Below the pieces are notes generated by a model. That model saw only the letters and a list, made by a program, of their open reading frames with translations. It searched no databases and was not told the DNA's origin. A program made the position numbers and the translations under genes. Below, in pieces: positions 1,024-13,569 of a stretch of DNA of 41,521 bases. The stretch lies in the IMG/VR virus record IMGVR_UViG_3300017782_000049, positions 1 to 41,521 of that record, one strand, 5' to 3'. This DNA is from a virus. Within the stretch, counting starts at the first letter, position 1. Every line of letters starts with the position of its first letter.

Positions 1024-1259
1024 AAGAAAGTAAACTTTTAGAAATGCAAAACAAAATTAAGTCTTTGACTAATGTTGTTCAGCAATTATTATATGAAATA
1101 ACACATCTAAGGGAATTAAGTGTAGGAACTTTAGAAACTATAAAGTTAATGCCTGATTATCAAGATGCCATTGATGCTTTAAAAAAGCAAATGGAGGAAA
1201 AAAATAAAGAAATAAAAAAAGCAAAACAAAATGGAGCTATCGAACAAGATACTAAGTGA
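1020..1259 (+). CDS. Small coiled-coil protein upstream of nrdJ
   Basis: Protein of 79 residues, almost entirely helical with heptad-like leucines (LLEMQNKIKSLTNVVQQLLY), then VGTLETIKLMPDYQDAIDAL and a charged Lys/Glu tail. I recall similar proteins (LLELQNK..., TLETLKLMPGY) directly upstream of phage ribonucleotide reductases, but know no function. It may be an oligomerising accessory protein. The start shares ATGA with the preceding gene. The last 29 nt overlap the start of the reductase gene, so the two are probably translated in a coupled way. Confidence 0.7.
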   Translation: MKESKLLEMQNKIKSLTNVVQQLLYEITHLRELSVGTLETIKLMPDYQDAIDALKKQMEEKNKEIKKAKQNGAIEQDTK

Positions 1260-3093
1260 TATTACTGTTTATATGAAGTATGCTAAATACGTACCTGAAT
1301 TAAACAGAAGAGAAACATGGGAAGAGTTAGTAACTAGAAATAAGAACATGCATATCAAAAAATATCCTAAGCTTGTTGACGAAATTAATGCTGCTTACAA
1401 ATACGTGTATGAAAAGAAAGTTTTACCGTCTATGCGATCGTTACAGTTCGGAGGCAAACCTATTGAAATCTCGCCTAATAGAGTCTACAATTGTGCTTAT
1501 TTACCTATTGATAGCATTGAGTCTTTTAATGAAATAATGTTTTTACTACTTGGTGGTACGGGTGTAGGTTACTCTGTCCAACATCATCACGTGAATAAAT
1601 TACCATCAGTTAACCAGCCTTATAGTAAAAGAACTAGAAGGCATTTAATTGGTGATAGTATTGAAGGTTGGGCTGACGCAGTTAAAGTCTTAGTTAAGTC
1701 TTATATGGGTCCTAAGAGATCATCTAAGATAACATTTGATTATTCTGATATAAGACCAAAGGGTGCACAATTAGTTACATCTGGAGGTAAAGCTCCAGGT
1801 CCACAACCTTTAAAAGAGTGTATTGTGAAAGTAGCAGGAATTTTAAACGATGTGGAAGACGGAGATAAATTAACTACATTACAAGCTCACGACATTGTTT
1901 GTCACATTGCTGATGCTGTATTAGCAGGTGGTATACGTAGAGCAGCTTTAATTAGTTTATTTTCAGCAGATGATGAAGCAATGATCGGCTGTAAGTCTGG
2001 ACATTGGTGGGAAGAAGCGCCTCAAAGAGGAAGAGCAAATAATTCTGCTGTTCTTATGAGACATAAAATAAACAAAGGGTTTTTTATGGACTTATGGAAA
2101 AGAGTTGAGCGGTCAGGATCAGGTGAACCAGGTATTTACTTTAATAATGATAAAGACTGGGGAACTAATCCTTGTTGCGAAATAGCATTAAGACCATATC
2201 AGTTTTGTAACTTATGTGAGGTAAATGCTAGTGACATAAAAGATCAAACTGATTTTAACGATAGATGTAGAGTAGCTTCATTTATAGGTACATTACAAGC
2301 AGGTTATACTGACTTTCATTATTTAAGAGACATATGGAAAGATACGACAGAGAAGGACGCCCTTATAGGTGTATCAATGACAGGAATAGGCTCTGCCGCT
2401 GTGCTGCAGTTGGATATGACGGAAGCTGCAGATATAGTAGTAAGCAAAAACAAACAAACAGCTAAAAAAATAGGGATTAAACCAGCTGCAAGATGCACAA
2501 CCGTGAAGCCTGCTGGGACAACATCTCTGGCATTAGGAACTTCATCTGGTATTCATGCATGGCATAATGATTATTATGTGCGTAGAGTAAGGGTTGGTAA
2601 AAACGAAAGTATGTACAACTACTTACTTAATAATCACCCTGATTTAATTGAAGATGAGTATTTTAGACCTCATGATACAGCTGTAATTAGTATACCACAA
2701 AAGGCGCCTAAAGGTTCTATACTTAGAACTGAATCACCATTTGATTTACTTGAGCGTATAAAAAAAGTAGCAACTGAGTGGGTTCAACCAGGCCATAAGC
2801 GTGGTAGTAACACTCATAACGTTTCTGCTACAGTTAGTTTGAAAGCTGAGGAGTGGGATCAAGCAGGTAAATGGATGTGGGATAATAGAGACTATTATAA
2901 CGGGTTGTCTGTCCTACCTTATGATGGTGGTACTTATACTCAAGCGCCTTTTGAAGATATAGATAAATCTAAATACGAAACTATGATGAAGAGTTTAACT
3001 GACGTTAATCTCACTAACATAGTAGAGGTTGATGATGAAACTGATCTAGCCGGTGAATTAGCTTGCGCAGGAGGCGCGTGTGAAATAACATGA
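1231..3093 (+). CDS. nrdJ: Adenosylcobalamin-dependent class II ribonucleotide reductase, monomeric (RTPR type)
   Basis: Reduces ribonucleotides to deoxyribonucleotides for phage DNA synthesis, using a B12-derived radical, so it needs no oxygen and no separate radical subunit. The key residues of Lactobacillus-type RTPR are all visible: the reducible pair C88 (YNCAY) and C326 (QFCNL), the thiyl-radical cysteine C315 with E317 (N313-PCCEI), the VKPAGTTS loop, and a C-terminal CxxxxC shuttle at C612/C617 close to the end. The spacing of C315 to C326 (11 residues) equals that of C408 to C419 in RTPR. At 620 residues it is shorter than the 739-residue bacterial enzyme, as is usual for phage forms. 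The usual Gly after the radical Cys is Cys316, which I also recall in marine phage enzymes. The end shares ATGA with the next gene. Dependence on host-supplied cobalamin is implied. Confidence 0.95.
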   Translation: MELSNKILSDITVYMKYAKYVPELNRRETWEELVTRNKNMHIKKYPKLVDEINAAYKYVYEKKVLPSMRSLQFGGKPIEISPNRVYNCAYLPIDSIESFNEIMFLLLGGTGVGYSVQHHHVNKLPSVNQPYSKRTRRHLIGDSIEGWADAVKVLVKSYMGPKRSSKITFDYSDIRPKGAQLVTSGGKAPGPQPLKECIVKVAGILNDVEDGDKLTTLQAHDIVCHIADAVLAGGIRRAALISLFSADDEAMIGCKSGHWWEEAPQRGRANNSAVLMRHKINKGFFMDLWKRVERSGSGEPGIYFNNDKDWGTNPCCEIALRPYQFCNLCEVNASDIKDQTDFNDRCRVASFIGTLQAGYTDFHYLRDIWKDTTEKDALIGVSMTGIGSAAVLQLDMTEAADIVVSKNKQTAKKIGIKPAARCTTVKPAGTTSLALGTSSGIHAWHNDYYVRRVRVGKNESMYNYLLNNHPDLIEDEYFRPHDTAVISIPQKAPKGSILRTESPFDLLERIKKVATEWVQPGHKRGSNTHNVSATVSLKAEEWDQAGKWMWDNRDYYNGLSVLPYDGGTYTQAPFEDIDKSKYETMMKSLTDVNLTNIVEVDDETDLAGELACAGGACEIT

Positions 3094-3627: not shown

Positions 3628-6600
3628 TTATTTGTTCCTTTTTACAATAACTCTAACTCTATCAGCTTCAGTTTTCAAACTTTTAATTGCTGATTTAGAG
3701 AATCCCATATCTAAAAGTATTTCCACTTGCTCAGATTTGTTTAGCTTTTTAAGATTATCTTCATCAGTAGACTTTCTATATTTATCAATTAAAGCTTTTC
3801 TTTCTTTATCATACTGATCGTATCCTACTAATTCATTTTCAGGATATTTCTTCTTGTTAGCTTTTATTATTATTTCAACTCTTTTTCTTTCTGTTTTTAT
3901 ATTCTTAACAGCTTCTTCTGAGTATCCAGCTTTTATTAATATATCTTCTTGCTCTTCTTTATTTAGTTTTTCAACTTGTTTGTAGTTAGAAGATTTAGCT
4001 CTGTCCTCAGGCGTTAACTCAATAGTTTTCTTTTCATCTACTATCTGCCATTTAGGCCAACCACCAAGTAAAGCTACATCTTGCATAAAGTCAGTTTCTT
4101 CTGACATAGCTGCTTCCACATTATCGTACTTTTGTAAAGCTCTATCTAAAGGTATATTTGTAGTAGCTGATAAAACTCTAGCTCCAGCCATCGCTGCAGG
4201 ATTATTCAAGCTAAATCCCTTGTCAAATATTTCTTGTCTACGTTTTTTACTATCAAAAGCATAAGCAGCTGATCTTATTTTACTTATCTTAGATCCTATT
4301 GGTGGTGAAAATTGCATAAACTTCCAAGTTGCATCAACATACTCAGGTCTTTTTCTTTTTGATCTTTCGTATATATCCATTAAGAAGTTTTTGCCAACTG
4401 AAACAGCTTGTCCACCAAAGCCTAAACCTCTTAACTGAGAATCTAACATGTTATTAGCTGTTCTGTAGTAAGCTTTAGTTTTCTTATCTTCATCTTCGTC
4501 AAAACCAATTTTAAATAATGCTTGTTGTAAAGCGTTAAATATTAAGTTTTGTACAAAACCATAATAAGCTATTTTACTCATATTTGTTTTAGCATCTCCT
4601 CTACGGTTAACTAAATCTTGAAAAGCTCTCTTCTGTAATCTAGCGTACTGCATAGGTGTATTAGCAAACATTAATATTAAACGACCAGCATCACTAGCTT
4701 GTTGTTGAGATATTTTAGCTGGATTAGAAGACTGTTGGCTTTCTTCAGATAATTGCCTCCACTCCATTGAGGCTATCTCCTTAGCCTTTGCTTCTGTTAA
4801 ACCTTGATTTTTTCTAAGATCATTTATTCTATTCCTATAATACGTAGCTCCACCTGCAGCTATAGCAAAACTATCAGCATATTGTGTAGGTAAATATCCT
4901 TTCTTTAAAATATAAGCCATAACAGCTTTAGCTTTATTCTTACTAGTTGCAGCAGCATCAGATATTTCAGATTCAGTTATATTAAGCCTTAACCCATTAC
5001 GCCTGTCTTTTAAGTAATCAGAGTTCATTAATTCTAAAAAGTCTTTCCAGTATTGTGGTTGATTAGCAAATGCAGCTCCTGCTTTAAGCGGGTTGTTAAA
5101 ACTCCAATTAACATAGTTTATAGAAGATATTGTTTGAAGTATAGCTGATCTAGTATTAAAGAACATTATAGCAGCATTAGATCCATTTATATAGTCTAAT
5201 ATCTGGTTGTTAAGCTTGCTACTTTCTGAAACTCTGTTTCTACCAGACTTCATACGAGTTAAACTATTTTCAAGAGCTTTTCTATATTTAGGACCATATA
5301 TAGCTTCAAGCTTGTTTAAGTTAGCCTCGCTAAATATTATGTCTGTATTTTGTTTCCACTCTTCTAAATACTTAGCCCTTTTAGTAGTGCTAATTAAGTC
5401 TATTAAGTCTGTTGTTATAGTTCCTACTAACCAGCTTTCTCTAGGTGTAGCGTACCCATCTCCTTTTGTTAAAGATAATATTTGATCTCCAAATGCTTTT
5501 AGTTTTTTGTTTTTGTTAACTACATCTAATAGTTCTCCTAAATCAGTTTTGCTCAAGCCAAACTTAGTCATGTCTTGTCCTGTCTTATCAAACAAGTAAG
5601 CTCTAACTGCCTCTTCATTAGTAAAACCTGTTGAGTTCTTTTTTCTTAAATCTTTAGGAACATCAAGAACTTTCTTTAACTCTTTAAAATCAGACATTAA
5701 CTGAACTCTATCTTTAGATAAGTTATCCATAGCTCTTGAGTAAGGGTTTAAAAAGTTTTGTTTCCACCAAGCCATTTGTGAATCTCCAACTTTACCTTTG
5801 CCTAGTGTTTTATATAATAAACCTGTCATGTCTTCAGCAGAGTAAGGTATCCAAAACTTACCTTTGCCTTTGCTAGCACCTATTGTTTTAGCTTTAGCAG
5901 CTGAAAACTCTTTATAATATTCTATGCCAGTTTTATTTTCTAACATTTTATTAAAGTCTTGACTTAGCTTTGTTGATCTTGAAATTACAGCTTGCTGTAC
6001 TTTAGATTTAACATCTAGCACTGACATTGCTTTTTTAACAGCTTCCACATTAGCAACAGCATCATCTGCAAAGTAAAAATCGTTATAACCCTCAGCAGCT
6101 TTACCTACAAGCCACTGTGCTTTAGCTTCACCTTCAGACCTACCTAACCCTATTATGTTTTCTTTTTTAAACTCTAAACCTTCTGACTTTAAAAACTCGT
6201 ATATAGCTTCTCTAGCTTCAGGAGCTCTAGCTGTCAGCACGAATAAATCTTCATTACCTCTTGCAGCTTTTATTTTTTCAGCTACCTTAAATAAAGGACC
6301 ACGACCACCTTCTCTTACTATGTTAAAATCTGAAAAGTCCATAACAGCTCCAGCATCTATTAACTTTCTTCCATATTCTGCAAACTGATCAGCTGTTAAA
6401 ACTCCTCTTTCTGTTTTGTTTATTTTAGATTTAACCTCTGTAACAAACTCCTTAGGAAGTGCTTTTCCATACTCTATAGTTTCAGTATCTATTTCTATAA
6501 AATTATTTCCTAAATCTTCTTTGTACTTAGGTACATTTTCGTTAACTGATTTCTGTGTTTTTTCTACAATAAAATCTTTTAATGATCTTTCTTTTCTAGC

Positions 6601-9600
6601 TCTGTTTCTTTCAAGTGCTACTTCATTACTAGTTTTAGCATGTATCATATAAACATCATAGCCTTGCTCTTTAAGTTTATTAACTTTCTTCATCGTGGCA
6701 TTATAGCTAGCACCTGTGCCATCTATAACCATGCCATCTCCAGCTTGTCTATATTTTTCCATTTTAGCTTCAGCAGCTTTTCTACCGGCAGCACCTATTT
6801 TAGCTCTAGCGCTTCTTTGTTCCTTGTCGTAACCTGCCTCTGATTCAGGTAAACCTTGTTTAGCTTTTTCAGACTCTATAAATATGTCTTGATTAACTAC
6901 TTTCCAGCCTTCTCTTCCAAGTTCTAAACCTTTACCTATATTTGATTTACCAGACCCAGGTCCACCAATCATGAATATAGCTTTACGCTTAGGTGAAGTT
7001 TTACCAGGTGTATTAGGTTTGTTATAAAACACTAAACTTTTACTCGTTGCTAAAGTGTCATCTAAATCAAATACTCTAATTTTTTTAATAGTCTTATTGA
7101 TCTTATTAGCATTAGCTATAGCTTTATCATTTTCGCTTAGATCTTTTAATATTTCAAAATTAGTTTTCTTAGTTGACCTGCTTATAACATTTTCACTAGC
7201 ATTAAAATCTACAATATCTTTTTTGTTTTCAGCTAAAGCAACTTTTAAAAAGTCTCTACCCTCGAATTTACCTTCGTTTTTACCAACTCCTCTAATAGAT
7301 CTTAAATCTGGATGCCTTTTTGTTAGCTCATTGTAATACCTAGCTACAGCTCTTAAATCGCTTACAAACATGTTTTGCTGTAAGCCGAAATCTTTAAGAA
7401 TATTATCCATAGACTTAGGTATTATAGCTACTTCATAGTCTTTGAATATATCTGCTACAGCTTTTTCACCAGCTTTAGTAAGCTTACCATCTACAAAGTT
7501 AGCCTTATCAAAGAAAGTTTTAGTTAAATCTGTTATTACAAACTCAGCAGGTTTCATATGTTCAAAAACAAAGTAATCATCTACTAAAACCTGTTTGCCT
7601 TTTTTAGTTTCTAATACTTTTTTACCTTTTATACTACCTTCAAATATCCAACCAACAGGAGCCGCTGTTCTTAATATTGAACCCATTCCGCTTTTTAAAC
7701 TCATTGTCCAAACTGCAAAATCTTCCTTACTTAATCTACCCTCCTGTAAAGCCTTGGTATACCATGACATTTGATTTACTAGTTCTTTTCTAGCTTCAAC
7801 AGCTGTATCTCTACTATCTTGTAATTGTTTTTCTGTAAAGTCAGCTTCACCATCTTTAGATACTTCTGTTTTTCCTTTTACAGATTTTAAAGAAATGTCT
7901 TTTTCTGAATACTTATTACCTTCTAAGCTAAATATTTGTATACCGTCTTTTCTTAACTCTAGATCTGTTAGTCCAACTACACCAGTTTTAAAAACTCTTT
8001 CTTTAGCAGATTTTCTAACTCTCCTGTCTTCATAAAAATTAAAATCTAAATAAGTAGTATAACCAAAACTAGCAGCTATTTCATTTAACATTTGGGCATA
8101 CTCAACTTTTCCAGTGAAAAAGTTAAATCTATTTGTCCCGTCAGGTTGTAAAATTATCTCGCCAGTTATAGGATCTTTATAACCACCATCAACAATTTTA
8201 GAAGCATCATAGTGATGACTTCCAACTCTCATAGCTAATGCAATATTATTTTCTAAAGCTTTTGCTAAACCTACACCAGTCTCTAAACCACCAACACCAA
8301 ATGCTTCTTCTATTATTTTATCCTCTATATAGTCTCTAGCGGCATTTCTAAGTCTAGTAACAGTTTCAGACTCTGCAGCATGTTTGTTTTTACTTAAGCT
8401 TTCAGTTCCTAAAACTTTGTCTAAAGTTTTTTCAGTGTTAGTAATAGCATTTCTATCTATTATCCAGTCCATTTTAGAAGACTCTGTAAGGTCAGGATTT
8501 TCCGATGCATCAAATAGCTTAGAAAACCTCATAAATGTTTTAGCTAAATCGTTAGAAGTTTTAGTTTCTATATTACCTTTTTTATCTCTAGGAGTATTAA
8601 TAATAGATCCGTTTATTCTATTCATTTCGTTATCACCCTTTTGTAAGGCAATTTTTATTTCTTTAGCTAAAGCTTTCTCATCTTTAAATCTTACTTTATC
8701 TACGGCAGCAATTACATATGGTTGATATGTCTTTATGTAGTTATTAAAGTCCTCAGCATCTAAATCGAATATTCTCTTAGTTGATCTACTTATCTCAGCG
8801 CTAGCTATCTGACTTTTTAGTTTTTGTCTAAAATCACTTTGTAATTCTCTACCGGTTAGCTCAGTTAAATCTTTTAATCTAGAGTCTATAGCATCGTTAG
8901 TTCCAGATGATTCTAGTATCTGCTCTACGACAGCTTTACCCATCAATTGACCTGCTATGCCCTGTTTCCTTGTTTGTGCCTTAAAAGTCTCGAAAAAAGC
9001 TTTTTTATTAGCTGGCGAGTTAAAGTCAAACGTTGGGTTTATTCTTATAAATTCAGGTTGAGAAGTAACACCGTGTAGAGACTTTATCATTTTATCAGTA
9101 GTTTTACCAAACCAATCGCTAGTATATCGAGGTATAAAATCTACAGCTTTGCCACTAGCATCTTTTACCAGCTGTCCGCCAACAGACTTCTGAACCATAC
9201 CTTTAGGTAATGTTGTTGATCCTTTTTTATTAAACTCTCTAGCAGCTATATCACTAAAGTAAGAAGACTGTATGTTCTTAACTATTTTTTCAAAGTTTTC
9301 ATTGTAGTAGTTTTCTAAGCTTTTACCAGTGCCCATTGATTTATATATAGGTCCTTCTTTTATATCTCTACTTTGAACAACTTGCTTTCTTATGTCTCTT
9401 AAAAAGTTAGACATACTTTGATTAGGTCCTCCTACATTAGAAATATCTGATAGCTTATCAAATCTAATTTTTAAAGAAACCTCTTTTACATATTCACCAG
9501 TGTTTTGCTTTTCGTTATTTACTTCTACCTCTTTAGGTAACCCAGTTCTATCTATTATAGTTTTTGGCTTTTCACTTTTTACTTCTCTATCTTTAGCTAA

Positions 9601-12600
9601 AGCAATGTCAGTAGCTTCTTCTGGTGATATAAATCCAGACTCTAATGATTTTATTTCTCTAGAAGTTTCTTCTGGTGCTCTATCTAAAGATACCTCAGAT
9701 CCCTTCTTTATACCAAACTCACCTTTTAATACGTCTCCTTTTCTAAAATTAATTCTAGGCATTATGTATCCACCAAAAGAGTTATTTTGCTCAGGATTAA
9801 AACTTGCAATATCTTTAGCAAGTTTAGATCTAACCTCTTGCATAAAAGCTTCTTTACCTGCTTTTAAATTACTAGCTCCAATTTTAGAACCTATGTATTT
9901 ATTAAATATTTCTTTTATATTATTATTGTTTTTGCTTAATAAATCTCTAACAACTGACTCAGATTTCTTTTTCCATGCTTCGTTGCTAATGCTATACACG
10001 CCATCTCTTTTACCTCCTACTATACCATCAAGCTCTTTATTAGATCGCTGCATTTGCTCTTTAGACATATTAGGATCAAAATCTTTTAGCATTTGCTCAG
10101 CTTTAGCTTGAACTTCTGGGCTTGTATTGCCAAGCCTAACGCCTTGAGAAAACCTTTTAATAAATTCAAAAGCATCTGCACCTTTGCTAAAGTCTAAATT
10201 TTTAAAAGGAGTATTGCTCTCCATTAATATACTTATTTTTTCACCTGCTTTGCTAAATGAATTTTTAGATGCAAAAGTCCCACCAGCTATTACTTCAGAA
10301 GTTATAGCTACTACCTCTTTGTCAAACTCTCCTAAACCTCTATTGTTTAGTATTGAATCTACTTGTTCTTTAACACTGGCAGGTAAAGAGTTTTTAAATT
10401 CTTTTATAAAAGCTGTAGCTTTAGCTTTTGACATTTTGTCTAAAACATTATCAAATAACGGGTGTGTTATTTCATGTATATCTAAAGAAGTTGCATAAGT
10501 ATCATATGCATGCTTTTCGTTTATATATATAACGGGTTTACCAGATTTAGACTTCCCTAAGAAAAAACCTTGAGTATCGGATTCGTCTGTTTTTATCCCT
10601 TCTTCTACTAAAGCTTTTTTAAATTCGTCTGGGCCTAAAGGTTTGTATTCTACGTCTTTTAAGTTTACTCCGTCTCCATAAGTATCTAACACTTTTTGCT
10701 GTAAAGACTTTCTATTTTTATATGCTTCTTCTTTAGCAAAATTATTTGATGATTTTTCAATTTCTTCTATTGATTTTTTTAAAGAATTTATTTCACTAGA
10801 TCTATCTACTCCATCATCAATTGCCAACAACTCTCCTATTTGTTTCTTTTTATTACTTAAATCCCTAGCATAATCAAACCAAGTTGACATAGCTTTCGTG
10901 CCATCTTGTATACCACGCTCTCTACCTTGAATTATCCACTCATGCATCAAGCTTAGATTTCCTAATATCTCTGTTCTAGCCCTGTTGTTGCCAGAAAAAG
11001 GACCTCTTGGATCTAATATTATTCCAGCTGTTCTATCCATGTTAGGTACAGATAATGCTTTTATAGCTATATCTGTAGGTATTTCTGATCCATTAGCCAT
11101 CAATTTCCCAACAGCATACGTATCAGCCATTAATTGCTCTCCACCTTCATCTCTTAGGCTTGATTCAAATTCCTGAAGTTTTAACCCTTGCTTTAAATTG
11201 TATTTAGCAGTTTCTAAATCTTTCTTTCTTTTTTGTTGCTTTTCTGTTAAATTTTCTTGATCTAAACCTTCTTTTTTAATTAACTCTTCAAACCTAGACT
11301 CTACCTCAGCTTCAGAAAGCTCACTAAGTTCAAAACCATTAGCATCTTTAGTTTTTGATTTAAACTTATTTAACAAATCTAATGCTCTAGCACCACCACT
11401 AGCATTAGCGTTCATTTCACCTCTGTAAAAAGCTACGTCATTTTTAATAGCTCTTTTCATGTCTTGAAGACCTTTACTTAGGTTTACAGTACCAAGTGCT
11501 GCAACCATCATCCAAGTAGATACAAGGTTGTCTAGTTGAAGAATATCTACATTTCCATCTCCGTCTGTATCTAAATCATGACCAGCAAGTATAGTTTCAC
11601 CTAGCTGACCAGCTGTCATTACGCCAGTTCCAACAGTTGGCTTTGTAATTCCATTTACTATGTTGTTGAAAGTTTTAGAGCCTTTACTTAACTGATAATA
11701 AGCTTTCCTATACGATGGAGATTTCAACATCTTGTTAGTAGTTCCTTTTAACAAACTACCAGTTCCAGCAGCACCAATAGCAAACAAAGGATTCATTCTT
11801 TCCTCACCTAACGGTTCCATAACTTTATTTCTAGCTTCTATTACTGCAGCTTCTGTAGCGACAGCTGTAGTAAACTTAGCTATAGGCTTTTGGTATTTAC
11901 CAAGTCTTTTGCTGTTCATTATAGCTTTTTCAAAGAAGTTTTCCATTTGCTTTAGCTTCTGAGGACCTATAGCTTTTCTAGTATATCCAAATTCTAAAGC
12001 TATTTGAGCAAAACCTAATAAACCTTCACCTGTAGTTTGCTCTATAACACCTGGATTAATTTTATCTTCAATTTCTTTAGATCTTTCAGCTCCTAGTCTC
12101 TCTCTAGTAAAGTTATAAAACTGTTCCATCTCATCAGTTTTTCTTAGATCTTTATCTCTATAAGGAACACCTGGGCCACCTAAAGCTTTATTAACATCAC
12201 TTACTTTATCTACAACACTTTGACCAAATATATCTAAAAAGTTTACGTTCTCTTCCGCGTCTGTAGGTTTATAATTTAAAGCTATTGACCTTTGAACAAT
12301 CATTAATTGATCTAGCTTTTCATTATATTTTCTAGCTAATATGTCATTTTTATTAATATACTTTAGACCAGGAACAAGACCTCCTCCAGCCATGTTGCTT
12401 TTTCTTTGTAATGCAAACGGAGAGTCATCATCTTCAAATCTACCTAATTTACCAGCTAAATAAGCAACCTCATTTACAAGTTTATTTTCAGCAGTGTACA
12501 TTTCTTCTAACGTGCTGTCACCCCAAACTGATTCAGCTTGTGCACTTTTGTAAGATTCATTTTCCACATCATCACTAGAAGCTGAAGATCTTTTTATAAT

Positions 12601-13569
12601 TTTACCTTTAGTAGGATCATACCACTGGCTAGGAACACCATCTTCACTAAAGCTAACTAGTTCTTGGTTTCTTATTTCTTGTAGCTCTTTCTTATAAGAA
12701 GATATTTGTTTTAAGATTTCTTGCTGCTCTGATTGAGGAGCTTTTTTTAATTGAAGTAATGTTAACTCGTCTTTTAAAGACTGCAAGTTTCTATTTAGTT
12801 GACTTGCTTTTTGAGCTGGAACACTAGTGTAAGTCTCAGCTACCTCTATATTATTTAATATAACGTTTTGCTGAGCTTGATTTATTATTTTATTTGGTAT
12901 ATTAAAAGTACCGTCTTCGTTTTGTATAGAACTTCTTGATATTTTATTTTCGTATAATAACTTACCAATCTCTTTGTTTAATTCAAAAGTTTCTTGGTAT
13001 TGACCTCCTAAATAAACACCATAATCAACATTAGCTAACATTTTTTCATCTTGAAATATAGCTTCTGTATTTTTTTCCTCTTCAGTTTCAAATTCGTAAC
13101 CAAAATCCTCTATCAACTGCTTGCCTGCTTGCATTATAGGTTTAGTCATGAAAGGATCAATCTCTCCAGAAGACATTGGTTTGTCAAGTTTTATAAATTC
13201 AAAGCCTTCAGACGCTGGCTTACCTTGCATAACTGAGTTAGTGTTATCCCAGTTATTTAACCACCAGTTTTTACCTTCTAAACTTTGATTCCAATCTTCA
13301 TTATCACTAGAACCGTCTTGGTTAATTACAGGTTTCATAAACTCAGTGTATATAAACTTTTCATCTGGATCTAAATCTACGTCGTTATTCTCAGTAGTTA
13401 CCGGTTGTTTTTCTTCTTTGACTATTTCTGGCTTTGTTTCAGGTTTTACATTATACTGCATTACTTTAGCCTTGTTCTTAGCTAAGTAATCAGAAAAAGT
13501 TAAACCTTCTAAAGCGGCAAGTTCTTTAATTTGACTTTCAGAAAATGTTTCGCCGTTTATTTCGTACAT
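3628..13569 (-). CDS. Giant multidomain virion polyprotein-like protein (3313 aa)
   Basis: The last gene of the leftward structural operon and a quarter of the window. Order of recognisable parts: an N-terminal motif MYEINGETFSESQIKELAAL; an EF-hand-like loop DTDGDGNVDILQ at 667-678; an HExxH zinc-peptidase site H1032-E-I-T-H1036 with possible third ligand E1092; a region around NPEQNNSFGGYI...FRKGDVLK typical of these proteins; ISRSTK at 1593, 2129 and 2529; a HAD domain (D2168-L-D2170-D-T, VLTAR to 2448, FADD at 2500) with a P-loop kinase inserted (GGPGSGKS 2202-2209); a conserved C-terminal region (IPYSAEDMTGLLY, TPMQYARLQKRAF, ALLGGWPKWQI); and two C-terminal repeats. Similar large proteins are, as I recall, common and uncharacterised in marine podovirus-like phages. 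Position after the tail genes suggests an internal virion or ejected protein, as T7 gp15/gp16. Processing into pieces is inferred, not shown. Confidence 0.85.
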   Translation of the reverse strand: MYEINGETFSESQIKELAALEGLTFSDYLAKNKAKVMQYNVKPETKPEIVKEEKQPVTTENNDVDLDPDEKFIYTEFMKPVINQDGSSDNEDWNQSLEGKNWWLNNWDNTNSVMQGKPASEGFEFIKLDKPMSSGEIDPFMTKPIMQAGKQLIEDFGYEFETEEEKNTEAIFQDEKMLANVDYGVYLGGQYQETFELNKEIGKLLYENKISRSSIQNEDGTFNIPNKIINQAQQNVILNNIEVAETYTSVPAQKASQLNRNLQSLKDELTLLQLKKAPQSEQQEILKQISSYKKELQEIRNQELVSFSEDGVPSQWYDPTKGKIIKRSSASSDDVENESYKSAQAESVWGDSTLEEMYTAENKLVNEVAYLAGKLGRFEDDDSPFALQRKSNMAGGGLVPGLKYINKNDILARKYNEKLDQLMIVQRSIALNYKPTDAEENVNFLDIFGQSVVDKVSDVNKALGGPGVPYRDKDLRKTDEMEQFYNFTRERLGAERSKEIEDKINPGVIEQTTGEGLLGFAQIALEFGYTRKAIGPQKLKQMENFFEKAIMNSKRLGKYQKPIAKFTTAVATEAAVIEARNKVMEPLGEERMNPLFAIGAAGTGSLLKGTTNKMLKSPSYRKAYYQLSKGSKTFNNIVNGITKPTVGTGVMTAGQLGETILAGHDLDTDGDGNVDILQLDNLVSTWMMVAALGTVNLSKGLQDMKRAIKNDVAFYRGEMNANASGGARALDLLNKFKSKTKDANGFELSELSEAEVESRFEELIKKEGLDQENLTEKQQKRKKDLETAKYNLKQGLKLQEFESSLRDEGGEQLMADTYAVGKLMANGSEIPTDIAIKALSVPNMDRTAGIILDPRGPFSGNNRARTEILGNLSLMHEWIIQGRERGIQDGTKAMSTWFDYARDLSNKKKQIGELLAIDDGVDRSSEINSLKKSIEEIEKSSNNFAKEEAYKNRKSLQQKVLDTYGDGVNLKDVEYKPLGPDEFKKALVEEGIKTDESDTQGFFLGKSKSGKPVIYINEKHAYDTYATSLDIHEITHPLFDNVLDKMSKAKATAFIKEFKNSLPASVKEQVDSILNNRGLGEFDKEVVAITSEVIAGGTFASKNSFSKAGEKISILMESNTPFKNLDFSKGADAFEFIKRFSQGVRLGNTSPEVQAKAEQMLKDFDPNMSKEQMQRSNKELDGIVGGKRDGVYSISNEAWKKKSESVVRDLLSKNNNNIKEIFNKYIGSKIGASNLKAGKEAFMQEVRSKLAKDIASFNPEQNNSFGGYIMPRINFRKGDVLKGEFGIKKGSEVSLDRAPEETSREIKSLESGFISPEEATDIALAKDREVKSEKPKTIIDRTGLPKEVEVNNEKQNTGEYVKEVSLKIRFDKLSDISNVGGPNQSMSNFLRDIRKQVVQSRDIKEGPIYKSMGTGKSLENYYNENFEKIVKNIQSSYFSDIAAREFNKKGSTTLPKGMVQKSVGGQLVKDASGKAVDFIPRYTSDWFGKTTDKMIKSLHGVTSQPEFIRINPTFDFNSPANKKAFFETFKAQTRKQGIAGQLMGKAVVEQILESSGTNDAIDSRLKDLTELTGRELQSDFRQKLKSQIASAEISRSTKRIFDLDAEDFNNYIKTYQPYVIAAVDKVRFKDEKALAKEIKIALQKGDNEMNRINGSIINTPRDKKGNIETKTSNDLAKTFMRFSKLFDASENPDLTESSKMDWIIDRNAITNTEKTLDKVLGTESLSKNKHAAESETVTRLRNAARDYIEDKIIEEAFGVGGLETGVGLAKALENNIALAMRVGSHHYDASKIVDGGYKDPITGEIILQPDGTNRFNFFTGKVEYAQMLNEIAASFGYTTYLDFNFYEDRRVRKSAKERVFKTGVVGLTDLELRKDGIQIFSLEGNKYSEKDISLKSVKGKTEVSKDGEADFTEKQLQDSRDTAVEARKELVNQMSWYTKALQEGRLSKEDFAVWTMSLKSGMGSILRTAAPVGWIFEGSIKGKKVLETKKGKQVLVDDYFVFEHMKPAEFVITDLTKTFFDKANFVDGKLTKAGEKAVADIFKDYEVAIIPKSMDNILKDFGLQQNMFVSDLRAVARYYNELTKRHPDLRSIRGVGKNEGKFEGRDFLKVALAENKKDIVDFNASENVISRSTKKTNFEILKDLSENDKAIANANKINKTIKKIRVFDLDDTLATSKSLVFYNKPNTPGKTSPKRKAIFMIGGPGSGKSNIGKGLELGREGWKVVNQDIFIESEKAKQGLPESEAGYDKEQRSARAKIGAAGRKAAEAKMEKYRQAGDGMVIDGTGASYNATMKKVNKLKEQGYDVYMIHAKTSNEVALERNRARKERSLKDFIVEKTQKSVNENVPKYKEDLGNNFIEIDTETIEYGKALPKEFVTEVKSKINKTERGVLTADQFAEYGRKLIDAGAVMDFSDFNIVREGGRGPLFKVAEKIKAARGNEDLFVLTARAPEAREAIYEFLKSEGLEFKKENIIGLGRSEGEAKAQWLVGKAAEGYNDFYFADDAVANVEAVKKAMSVLDVKSKVQQAVISRSTKLSQDFNKMLENKTGIEYYKEFSAAKAKTIGASKGKGKFWIPYSAEDMTGLLYKTLGKGKVGDSQMAWWKQNFLNPYSRAMDNLSKDRVQLMSDFKELKKVLDVPKDLRKKNSTGFTNEEAVRAYLFDKTGQDMTKFGLSKTDLGELLDVVNKNKKLKAFGDQILSLTKGDGYATPRESWLVGTITTDLIDLISTTKRAKYLEEWKQNTDIIFSEANLNKLEAIYGPKYRKALENSLTRMKSGRNRVSESSKLNNQILDYINGSNAAIMFFNTRSAILQTISSINYVNWSFNNPLKAGAAFANQPQYWKDFLELMNSDYLKDRRNGLRLNITESEISDAAATSKNKAKAVMAYILKKGYLPTQYADSFAIAAGGATYYRNRINDLRKNQGLTEAKAKEIASMEWRQLSEESQQSSNPAKISQQQASDAGRLILMFANTPMQYARLQKRAFQDLVNRRGDAKTNMSKIAYYGFVQNLIFNALQQALFKIGFDEDEDKKTKAYYRTANNMLDSQLRGLGFGGQAVSVGKNFLMDIYERSKRKRPEYVDATWKFMQFSPPIGSKISKIRSAAYAFDSKKRRQEIFDKGFSLNNPAAMAGARVLSATTNIPLDRALQKYDNVEAAMSEETDFMQDVALLGGWPKWQIVDEKKTIELTPEDRAKSSNYKQVEKLNKEEQEDILIKAGYSEEAVKNIKTERKRVEIIIKANKKKYPENELVGYDQYDKERKALIDKYRKSTDEDNLKKLNKSEQVEILLDMGFSKSAIKSLKTEADRVRVIVKRNK
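3631..3966 (-). repeat. Two diverged 38-residue repeats at the C-terminus of the giant protein
   Basis: Residues 3202-3239 (codons 3853-3966) and 3276-3313 (codons 3631-3744) align without gaps as LNKxEQxxIL...G(Y/F)SxxA(V/I)Kx(I/L)KTExxRVxxI(I/V)KxNK, roughly half identical. They are joined by a charged linker of about 36 residues. The pattern suggests a small helical binding unit of SAP/HeH or UBA-like kind; the exact fold is uncertain. Confidence 0.75.
6040..7090 (-). other. HAD phosphatase domain with inserted P-loop kinase domain
   Basis: Domain-level note inside the giant protein (about residues 2160-2510). HAD motif I (FDLDDT, 2167-2172, DxDxT form) is followed at once by a complete P-loop kinase: Walker A GGPGSGKS 2202-2209, VVNQDIF with a candidate catalytic Asp, VIDGTGA, and an arginine-rich lid (ERNRARKERSL). 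The remaining HAD motifs come only after it: FVLTAR 2443-2448 and FADDAVANVEAV from 2500. The kinase resembles zeta-toxin/polynucleotide kinase folds. The HAD plus kinase pairing recalls T4 Pnkp, where the two are side by side rather than nested. Confidence 0.75.
10290..10476 (-). other. HExxH metallopeptidase-like site in giant protein
   Basis: Codons 1032-1036 read HEITH, in the context DIHEITHPLFDNVLDKM, preceded by a GKPVIYINEKHAYD strand-like segment. This is the zincin signature: two His bind zinc and Glu is the general base. About 55 residues later EVVAITSEVIAGG offers Glu1092 (or Glu1085) as third ligand, a gluzincin-type arrangement. It may be a protease that processes this protein or attacks host proteins after ejection; neither is proved by the sequence. 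Confidence 0.6.

What the first reader, a model, noticed from the sequence alone, without database searches (positions are those of the whole stretch)
6040..7090. Kinase domain nested inside a HAD phosphatase domain in a virion-type giant protein
HAD motif I (FDLDDT, residues 2167-2172) and the rest of the HAD motifs (FVLTAR 2443-2448, FADD from 2500) are separated by about 270 residues holding a complete P-loop kinase (GGPGSGKS 2202-2209, VVNQDIF, VIDGTGA, arginine-rich lid). I recall related polyproteins whose HAD domain continues without this insertion, so the kinase looks like a guest. A kinase plus DxDxT phosphatase is the pairing of T4 Pnkp, which heals RNA ends broken by host defence. 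A virion-delivered end-healing or zeta-type kinase is a testable idea, not a demonstrated one.
Basis: partly seen in the sequence, partly recalled or inferred. Interest (0 to 1): 0.78.

Follow-up and report, generated by a model that had tools for sequence, protein, structure and literature searches.

The report
Kinase nested inside phage phosphatase domain
A giant protein of an uncultured marine phage contains a phosphatase domain that has been split, at its natural 'cap' position, by a complete small kinase; related phages carry the phosphatase alone, the kinase alone, both nested or neither, so this is a swappable enzyme cassette whose target is still unknown.

Summary
Residues 2137-2528 of a 3,313-aa polyprotein (3628-13569, minus strand) are one HAD phosphatase interrupted by a complete P-loop kinase. 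The break lies in the beta-hairpin 'flap' just after motif I, the canonical C1-cap site of HAD enzymes. Viral contigs gave 50 relatives with an uninterrupted HAD, 65 distinct sequences with the kinase nested at this site, and 15 with a kinase-only cassette in the same slot. Catalytic residues of both enzymes are invariant wherever sequenced. The HAD tree forces at least three changes of state; contig L007 differs from its uninterrupted relative L048 by about 594 extra nucleotides in otherwise 79-88% identical DNA. The cassette is bounded by ISRSTK motifs that recur with different codons and co-vary within genomes, suggesting processing sites. Pnkp-like end healing is only partly supported: the kinase fold is PNK/zeta-like, but a key PNK arginine is replaced in all 80 kinases, no RtcB or PF09414 RNA ligase was found in 30 contigs, and the HAD alone resembles nucleotide/acid phosphatases. 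I favour an entry-delivered kinase-phosphatase acting on a small nucleotide-like substrate; that last step is inference. The parts are known; the nested arrangement appears undescribed.

The parts
3628..13569 (-). Giant polyprotein, 3313 aa, last gene of the structural operon
   Evidence: ORF list and translation; TerL, portal and structural neighbours by PHROGs
10384..10746 (-). Zincin-like metallopeptidase domain with HEITH (residues 1032-1036), candidate processing protease
   Evidence: HExxH in 150 of 153 polyproteins over 2000 aa; weak Pfam ATLF-type zincin match, E=0.0016, below the curated cut-off
10036..10053 (-). MQRSNK, divergent copy of the boundary motif (residues 1173-1178)
8776..8793 (-). 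ISRSTK boundary motif, copy 1 (residues 1593-1598)
7168..7185 (-). ISRSTK boundary motif, copy 2, N-terminal edge of the HAD[kinase] cassette (residues 2129-2134)
7015..7161 (-). HAD N-terminal part: helix, strand S1 with motif I DLDDT (2168-2172), flap strand 1 (2179-2185)
7054..7071 (-). HAD motif I FDLDDT
   Evidence: DxDxT invariant in 50 uninterrupted and 65 nested sequences
6487..6984 (-). Inserted P-loop kinase (PNK/zeta class), residues 2196-2361
   Evidence: Pfam/PHROGs, AF2 model, Foldseek CthPnkp/zeta/T4 Pnkp
6943..6966 (-). Walker A GGPGSGKS (K2208)
   Evidence: Lys invariant in 80 kinases
6880..6900 (-). VVNQDIF, predicted catalytic Asp 2228 (T4 Pnkp D35 position)
   Evidence: Asp invariant in 80; aligned to T4 PseT
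6583..6609 (-). LID RNRARKERS (residues 2321-2329)
   Evidence: RNxxR invariant in 80; aligns with RNSKR of T4 PseT
5986..6414 (-). HAD C-terminal part: flap strand 2 (2386-2392) through motifs II-IV
6226..6243 (-). HAD motif II FVLTAR
   Evidence: Thr and Arg invariant where sequenced
6121..6123 (-). Candidate HAD motif III lysine (K2483)
   Evidence: invariant Lys
6061..6072 (-). HAD motif IV FADD
   Evidence: DD invariant where sequenced
5968..5985 (-). ISRSTK boundary motif, copy 3, C-terminal edge of the cassette (residues 2529-2534)
5626..5958 (-). Conserved downstream module (DFNKMLENKTG...), used as anchor for slot content

Best explanation
A polyvalent-type phage polyprotein carries a cassette in which a PNK/zeta-class P-loop kinase has been inserted into the flap hairpin (C1-cap site) of a HAD phosphatase. 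Shown here: the nesting, its single fixed site, repeated gain or loss, free-standing versions of each partner in the same slot, and invariance of both catalytic sets. Inferred: both enzymes are active; the cassette is released from the polyprotein at the ISRSTK motifs, perhaps by the zincin domain, and delivered with the genome; in the cell, kinase and phosphatase act on related phosphorylated substrates, most likely a small nucleotide or nucleotide-derived metabolite (for example a defence signal or its precursor), with the kinase also serving as a lid over the phosphatase active site.
For: Exact fixed insertion site. Confident model with flap strands on either side of the kinase. Uninterrupted, nested and kinase-only forms. 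At least three state changes on the HAD tree, and L007 against L048 with about 594 extra nt in otherwise 79-88% identical DNA. Invariant catalytic residues. HAD core nearest to e(P4)/class C acid phosphatases. C1 caps sit in the middle of the flap, and capped HADs tend to take small substrates (PMC8069645). Boundary motif co-varies within genomes (z 12.7, 0 of 20,000 permutations), with different codons for the three window copies. Polyvalent proteins with zincin processing are a described class (PMC5512222).
Against: No substrate is identified. HAD-PDB matches are weak (best E 1.5e-3). Virion location is by gene order only. Coordinates and inter-domain error were not available, so a lid role is untested, and pTM 0.67 leaves the domain orientation open. 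Kinase-only forms show that the kinase does not need the HAD. Cleavage at the motif is unproven, and the permutation test does not fully remove relatedness.
Confidence: 0.45

Rival explanations
1. T4 Pnkp-like end healing: the kinase phosphorylates 5'-OH ends and the HAD removes 3'-phosphates of RNA cut by host defence nucleases.
For: Kinase folds most like CthPnkp and T4 Pnkp; catalytic Asp and RNxxR LID align with T4 PseT; PHROG 415, named polynucleotide kinase, matches the HAD.
Against: The T4 R38 position is Leu/Ile in all 80 kinases. No PF09414 or RtcB ligase in 30 contigs, whereas phage PNKs usually accompany RNA ligases (PMC7824862). PNKP HADs are uncapped (PMC8069645). HAD similarity to T4 PseT is limited to motif I.
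Confidence: 0.2
2. Zeta-type kinase cargo: the kinase phosphorylates UDP-sugars or another metabolite to stop the host cell, and the HAD reverses or limits the effect.
For: Pfam Zeta_toxin 8e-13, above the gathering cut-off; zeta structures among the top folds; kinase-only cassettes exist.
Against: AAA_33 scores equally well and CthPnkp is the better fold match; no antitoxin partner assigned; 65 of the 80 distinct kinases sit inside a phosphatase.
Confidence: 0.15
3. The two domains are functionally unrelated passengers: the flap turn is simply a tolerant insertion site spread by recombination through HAD flanks.
For: L007 looks like a recombinant whose donor tract includes short HAD flanks; kinase and HAD each occur alone.
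Against: The site is always the flap, the nested form is kept in diverse lineages, and both catalytic sets stay invariant.
Confidence: 0.2

Closest known systems
Polyvalent proteins of phages and conjugative elements (Iyer et al. 2017, PMC5512222)
   Same: Very long multidomain phage protein with a zincin-like peptidase and swappable enzymatic domains, thought to be injected and processed
   Different: That paper's text does not mention phosphatases, and I found no PNK-type kinase in the passages read; here one enzyme is nested in another and boundaries carry a genome-specific motif
T4 Pnkp (PseT) and bacterial Pnkp kinase domains
   Same: P-loop kinase fold, catalytic Asp, RNxxR LID, pairing of kinase with phosphatase
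   Different: T4 Pnkp is kinase followed by HAD in tandem; here the kinase is inside the HAD, lacks the R38 equivalent, and no ligase partner was found
HAD C1-capped phosphatases; class C acid phosphatase e(P4)
   Same: HAD core and motifs, insertion exactly in the flap hairpin
   Different: The 'cap' is itself a complete kinase with a conserved active site
Zeta toxin / PezT kinases
   Same: Sequence and fold class of the kinase
   Different: Embedded in a polyprotein, no antitoxin pair shown
Relatives in Melnitz, HTVC008M and Atu_ph07 phages
   Same: 32-34% identical kinase
   Different: Single-gene kinase, or part of a different 778-aa protein, not nested in a HAD

Membership tests
HAD superfamily phosphatase | Motifs I-IV (DxDxT, S/T, K, DD) on one fold | tested here: met
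   Motif residues invariant; uninterrupted relatives contiguous; models
HAD C1-cap insertion | Insert in the middle of the flap beta-hairpin after motif I | tested here: met
   Flap strands 2179-2185 and 2386-2392 flank the kinase; definition in PMC8069645
HAD C1-cap insertion | Insert covers the active site and shapes substrate binding | not testable with these tools
   Model coordinates and inter-domain error not available
Polynucleotide kinase-phosphatase (T4 Pnkp) | P-loop Lys, catalytic Asp, RNxxR LID | tested here: met
Polynucleotide kinase-phosphatase (T4 Pnkp) | Arg at the T4 R38 position contacting the nucleic-acid phosphate | tested here: not met
   Leu/Ile in all 80 kinases; role of R38 is from established knowledge
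Polynucleotide kinase-phosphatase (T4 Pnkp) | Tandem kinase-then-HAD order | tested here: not met
   Kinase nested after HAD motif I
Polynucleotide kinase-phosphatase (T4 Pnkp) | RNA ligase partner in the genome | tested here: inconclusive
   No PF09414 or RtcB in 30 partial contigs; PF09511 search had no positive control
Zeta toxin | Zeta_toxin sequence domain | tested here: met
   Pfam 8e-13, above cut-off
Zeta toxin | UDP-GlcNAc 3'-kinase activity | not testable with these tools
   needs an assay
Zeta toxin | Adjacent epsilon/PezA-type antitoxin | not tested
   Kinase is internal to a polyprotein; no antitoxin search was run
Polyvalent protein | Long multidomain phage protein with zincin peptidase | tested here: met
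   HExxH in 150 of 153; ATLF-type hit E=0.0016, below the curated cut-off
Polyvalent protein | Packaged in the virion and injected | tested here: inconclusive
   Gene order matches phi40:1 gp101, an MS/MS virion protein, but no sequence similarity

The most novel reading that the evidence does not exclude
An active P-loop kinase serves as the C1 cap of an active HAD phosphatase, so that one enzyme gates or feeds the other in a single bifunctional unit that is cut out of a virion polyprotein by a phage-specific protease/site pair and acts on a host nucleotide signal at genome entry.
Probability: 0.25. Interest if true: 0.8.

Novelty: new variant of a known kind. Interest (0 to 1): 0.6.

Why it matters
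If both active sites work, this is an enzyme used as the lid of another enzyme of opposite chemistry, and nature has supplied the controls: phosphatase alone, kinase alone and nested forms in the same slot. It makes the evolution of HAD caps by domain insertion directly testable. It also points to a widespread, unexplored set of marine-phage entry effectors with genome-specific processing motifs.

Tried and rejected
Assembly artefact: rejected, since 65 distinct nested sequences from many metagenomes share one site. Direct DNA repeats as the source of the ISRSTK copies: rejected, since the first Ser is encoded by AGT, AGC and TCA. A cellular source of the kinase: only two short contigs of one Aliivibrio MAG matched in the collection of 84,980 species genomes, probably viral. 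Homology of the giant protein to phi40:1 gp101: none detected by BLASTP, hmmsearch or hhalign. Domain naming of the rest of the polyprotein by Pfam/PHROGs gave almost nothing. A search of relatives' genomes was not possible for a virus record. Literature searches for a kinase inserted as a HAD cap found no precedent in the open-access library, which lacks most subscription papers. The PF09511 ligase search had no control hit and says nothing.

Full report
What is there. The finding lies in a 3,313-residue ORF on the minus strand (3628-13569). Pfam and PHROGs place a PNK/zeta-class kinase only on the insert (AAA_33 5e-13, Zeta_toxin 8e-13). PHROG 415 covers only the C-terminal HAD half in the window but runs contiguously across an uninterrupted relative.

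The nesting is real and at one site. Among 80 viral-contig loci from the first search, 50 have an uninterrupted HAD, 28 have the kinase nested, and two (L061, L066) have the kinase with no HAD. In uninterrupted forms the alignment passes from residue 2185/2186 straight to 2388. After a second search there are 65 distinct nested, 50 uninterrupted and 15 kinase-only sequences. A search anchored on the conserved downstream module gave 72 distinct loci: 40 with HAD, 2 nested, and 30 with neither within 470 residues, mostly a short linker. That sample is the 80 loci closest to one query and is not a census.

Structure. AlphaFold2 with a 52-sequence alignment gave mean pLDDT 83.9 and pTM 0.67. Strand 1 of the HAD flap is residues 2179-2185, the kinase spans 2196-2361, and flap strand 2 is 2386-2392. 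The uninterrupted relative L030 folds with the same elements, with the flap turn KPDGT at the insertion point. The middle of the flap hairpin is the site at which C1 caps are inserted in HAD enzymes (PMC8069645). I could not read coordinates, so packing of the kinase over the HAD active site is untested. Foldseek puts the kinase with Clostridium thermocellum Pnkp, zeta and T4 Pnkp; the HAD alone is nearest to class C acid phosphatases such as e(P4), at a modest E of 1.5e-3. A viral-structure match over 389 columns at 2.5 A rmsd and 24% identity suggests distant proteins with the same nested layout.

Constraint. DxDxT, motif II Thr/Arg, the candidate motif III Lys and the motif IV DD are invariant wherever sequenced in both forms. 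The P-loop Lys, the NxD Asp and the RNxxR LID are invariant in all 80 kinases. Against T4 PseT, the catalytic Asp and the LID arginines align, while the R38 position is Leu or Ile in every sequence. That R38 contacts nucleic-acid phosphate is established knowledge, not tested here.

Evolution. On a HAD tree built without the insert columns, starred branches force at least three changes between nested and uninterrupted states (quick method, SH-aLRT support only). L007 (nested) sits in a starred group with L039, L048 and L049 (uninterrupted). Its DNA is 88% identical to L048 downstream and 79% upstream of the site, with 616 nt against 22 nt at the site. Identity dips to about 70-80% within roughly 60 nt of the junctions, as expected if a donor tract with short HAD flanks was exchanged. 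The L007 kinase is far from the window's kinase on the kinase tree.

Boundaries. The window cassette is bracketed by ISRSTK at 2129 and 2529, with another at 1593 and a variant at 1173; no 6-mer occurred three times in any of 500 shuffles. Serine codons differ among copies, so this is not a DNA repeat. Across 89 distinct polyproteins the upstream and downstream edge motifs match within a genome more than between genomes (18.8 against 14.6, z 12.7, 0 of 20,000 permutations), for example GKASI/GKASI, ARMSQ/ARMSQ, NTSEKM/NTSEKM. Relatedness is only partly controlled. HExxH occurs in 150 of 153 polyproteins over 2,000 aa, and the window's has a weak ATLF-type zincin match. This fits the published idea that zincin domains process polyvalent proteins (PMC5512222), but cleavage is not shown.

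Context. TerL places the phage with podoviruses of Flavobacteriia. The giant gene is last in the structural operon; the gene at that position in Cellulophaga phage phi40:1 is a virion protein by MS/MS, but there is no detectable sequence similarity. Virion delivery is therefore inference from gene order.

Function. End healing predicts an RNA ligase partner; neither PF09414 nor RtcB was found in 30 contigs, which are partial. Phage PNKs usually accompany such ligases (PMC7824862), and capped HADs usually act on small molecules whereas PNKP is uncapped (PMC8069645). I therefore favour a small nucleotide-like substrate, at somewhat under even odds against all rivals together, and no substrate is demonstrated.

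Novelty. Each part is known. I found no description of a P-loop kinase at the C1-cap site of a HAD in the papers searched, which cover open-access literature only. I rate it a new variant of a known kind.

Noticed in passing
window residues 1173, 1593, 2129, 2529 of P0001 (10036-10053, 8776-8793, 7168-7185, 5968-5985) and 89 related polyproteins: Short domain-boundary motifs (ISRSTK here; KFSKS, KASKR, NTSEKM, ARMSQ, GKASI elsewhere) differ between genomes but match at both edges of the cassette within a genome; they look like genome-specific protease sites.
   Followed up: partly
window 10462-10476 and related polyproteins: A rapidly varying zincin-like HExxH domain lies upstream of the boundary motifs; HExxH is in 150 of 153 polyproteins. 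Whether its sequence co-varies with the motif was not tested.
   Followed up: partly
L021 and L043 (contig IMGVR_UViG_3300025131_000066): One 50-kb contig carries two different nested cassettes on opposite strands, either a phage with two polyproteins or a chimeric contig.
   Followed up: no
nested kinases such as L023, L129 and L146: 18 of 65 nested kinases have GKG instead of GK[ST] in the P-loop, which would change metal coordination.
   Followed up: no
L024, residues 2646-3056 of its polyprotein: About 400 extra residues lie between the nested cassette and the downstream module, suggesting a further cargo module in the slot.
   Followed up: no
window 1231-3093: Ribonucleotide reductase gene (PHROG 367, 8e-131) on the opposite strand close to the giant gene.
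   Followed up: no
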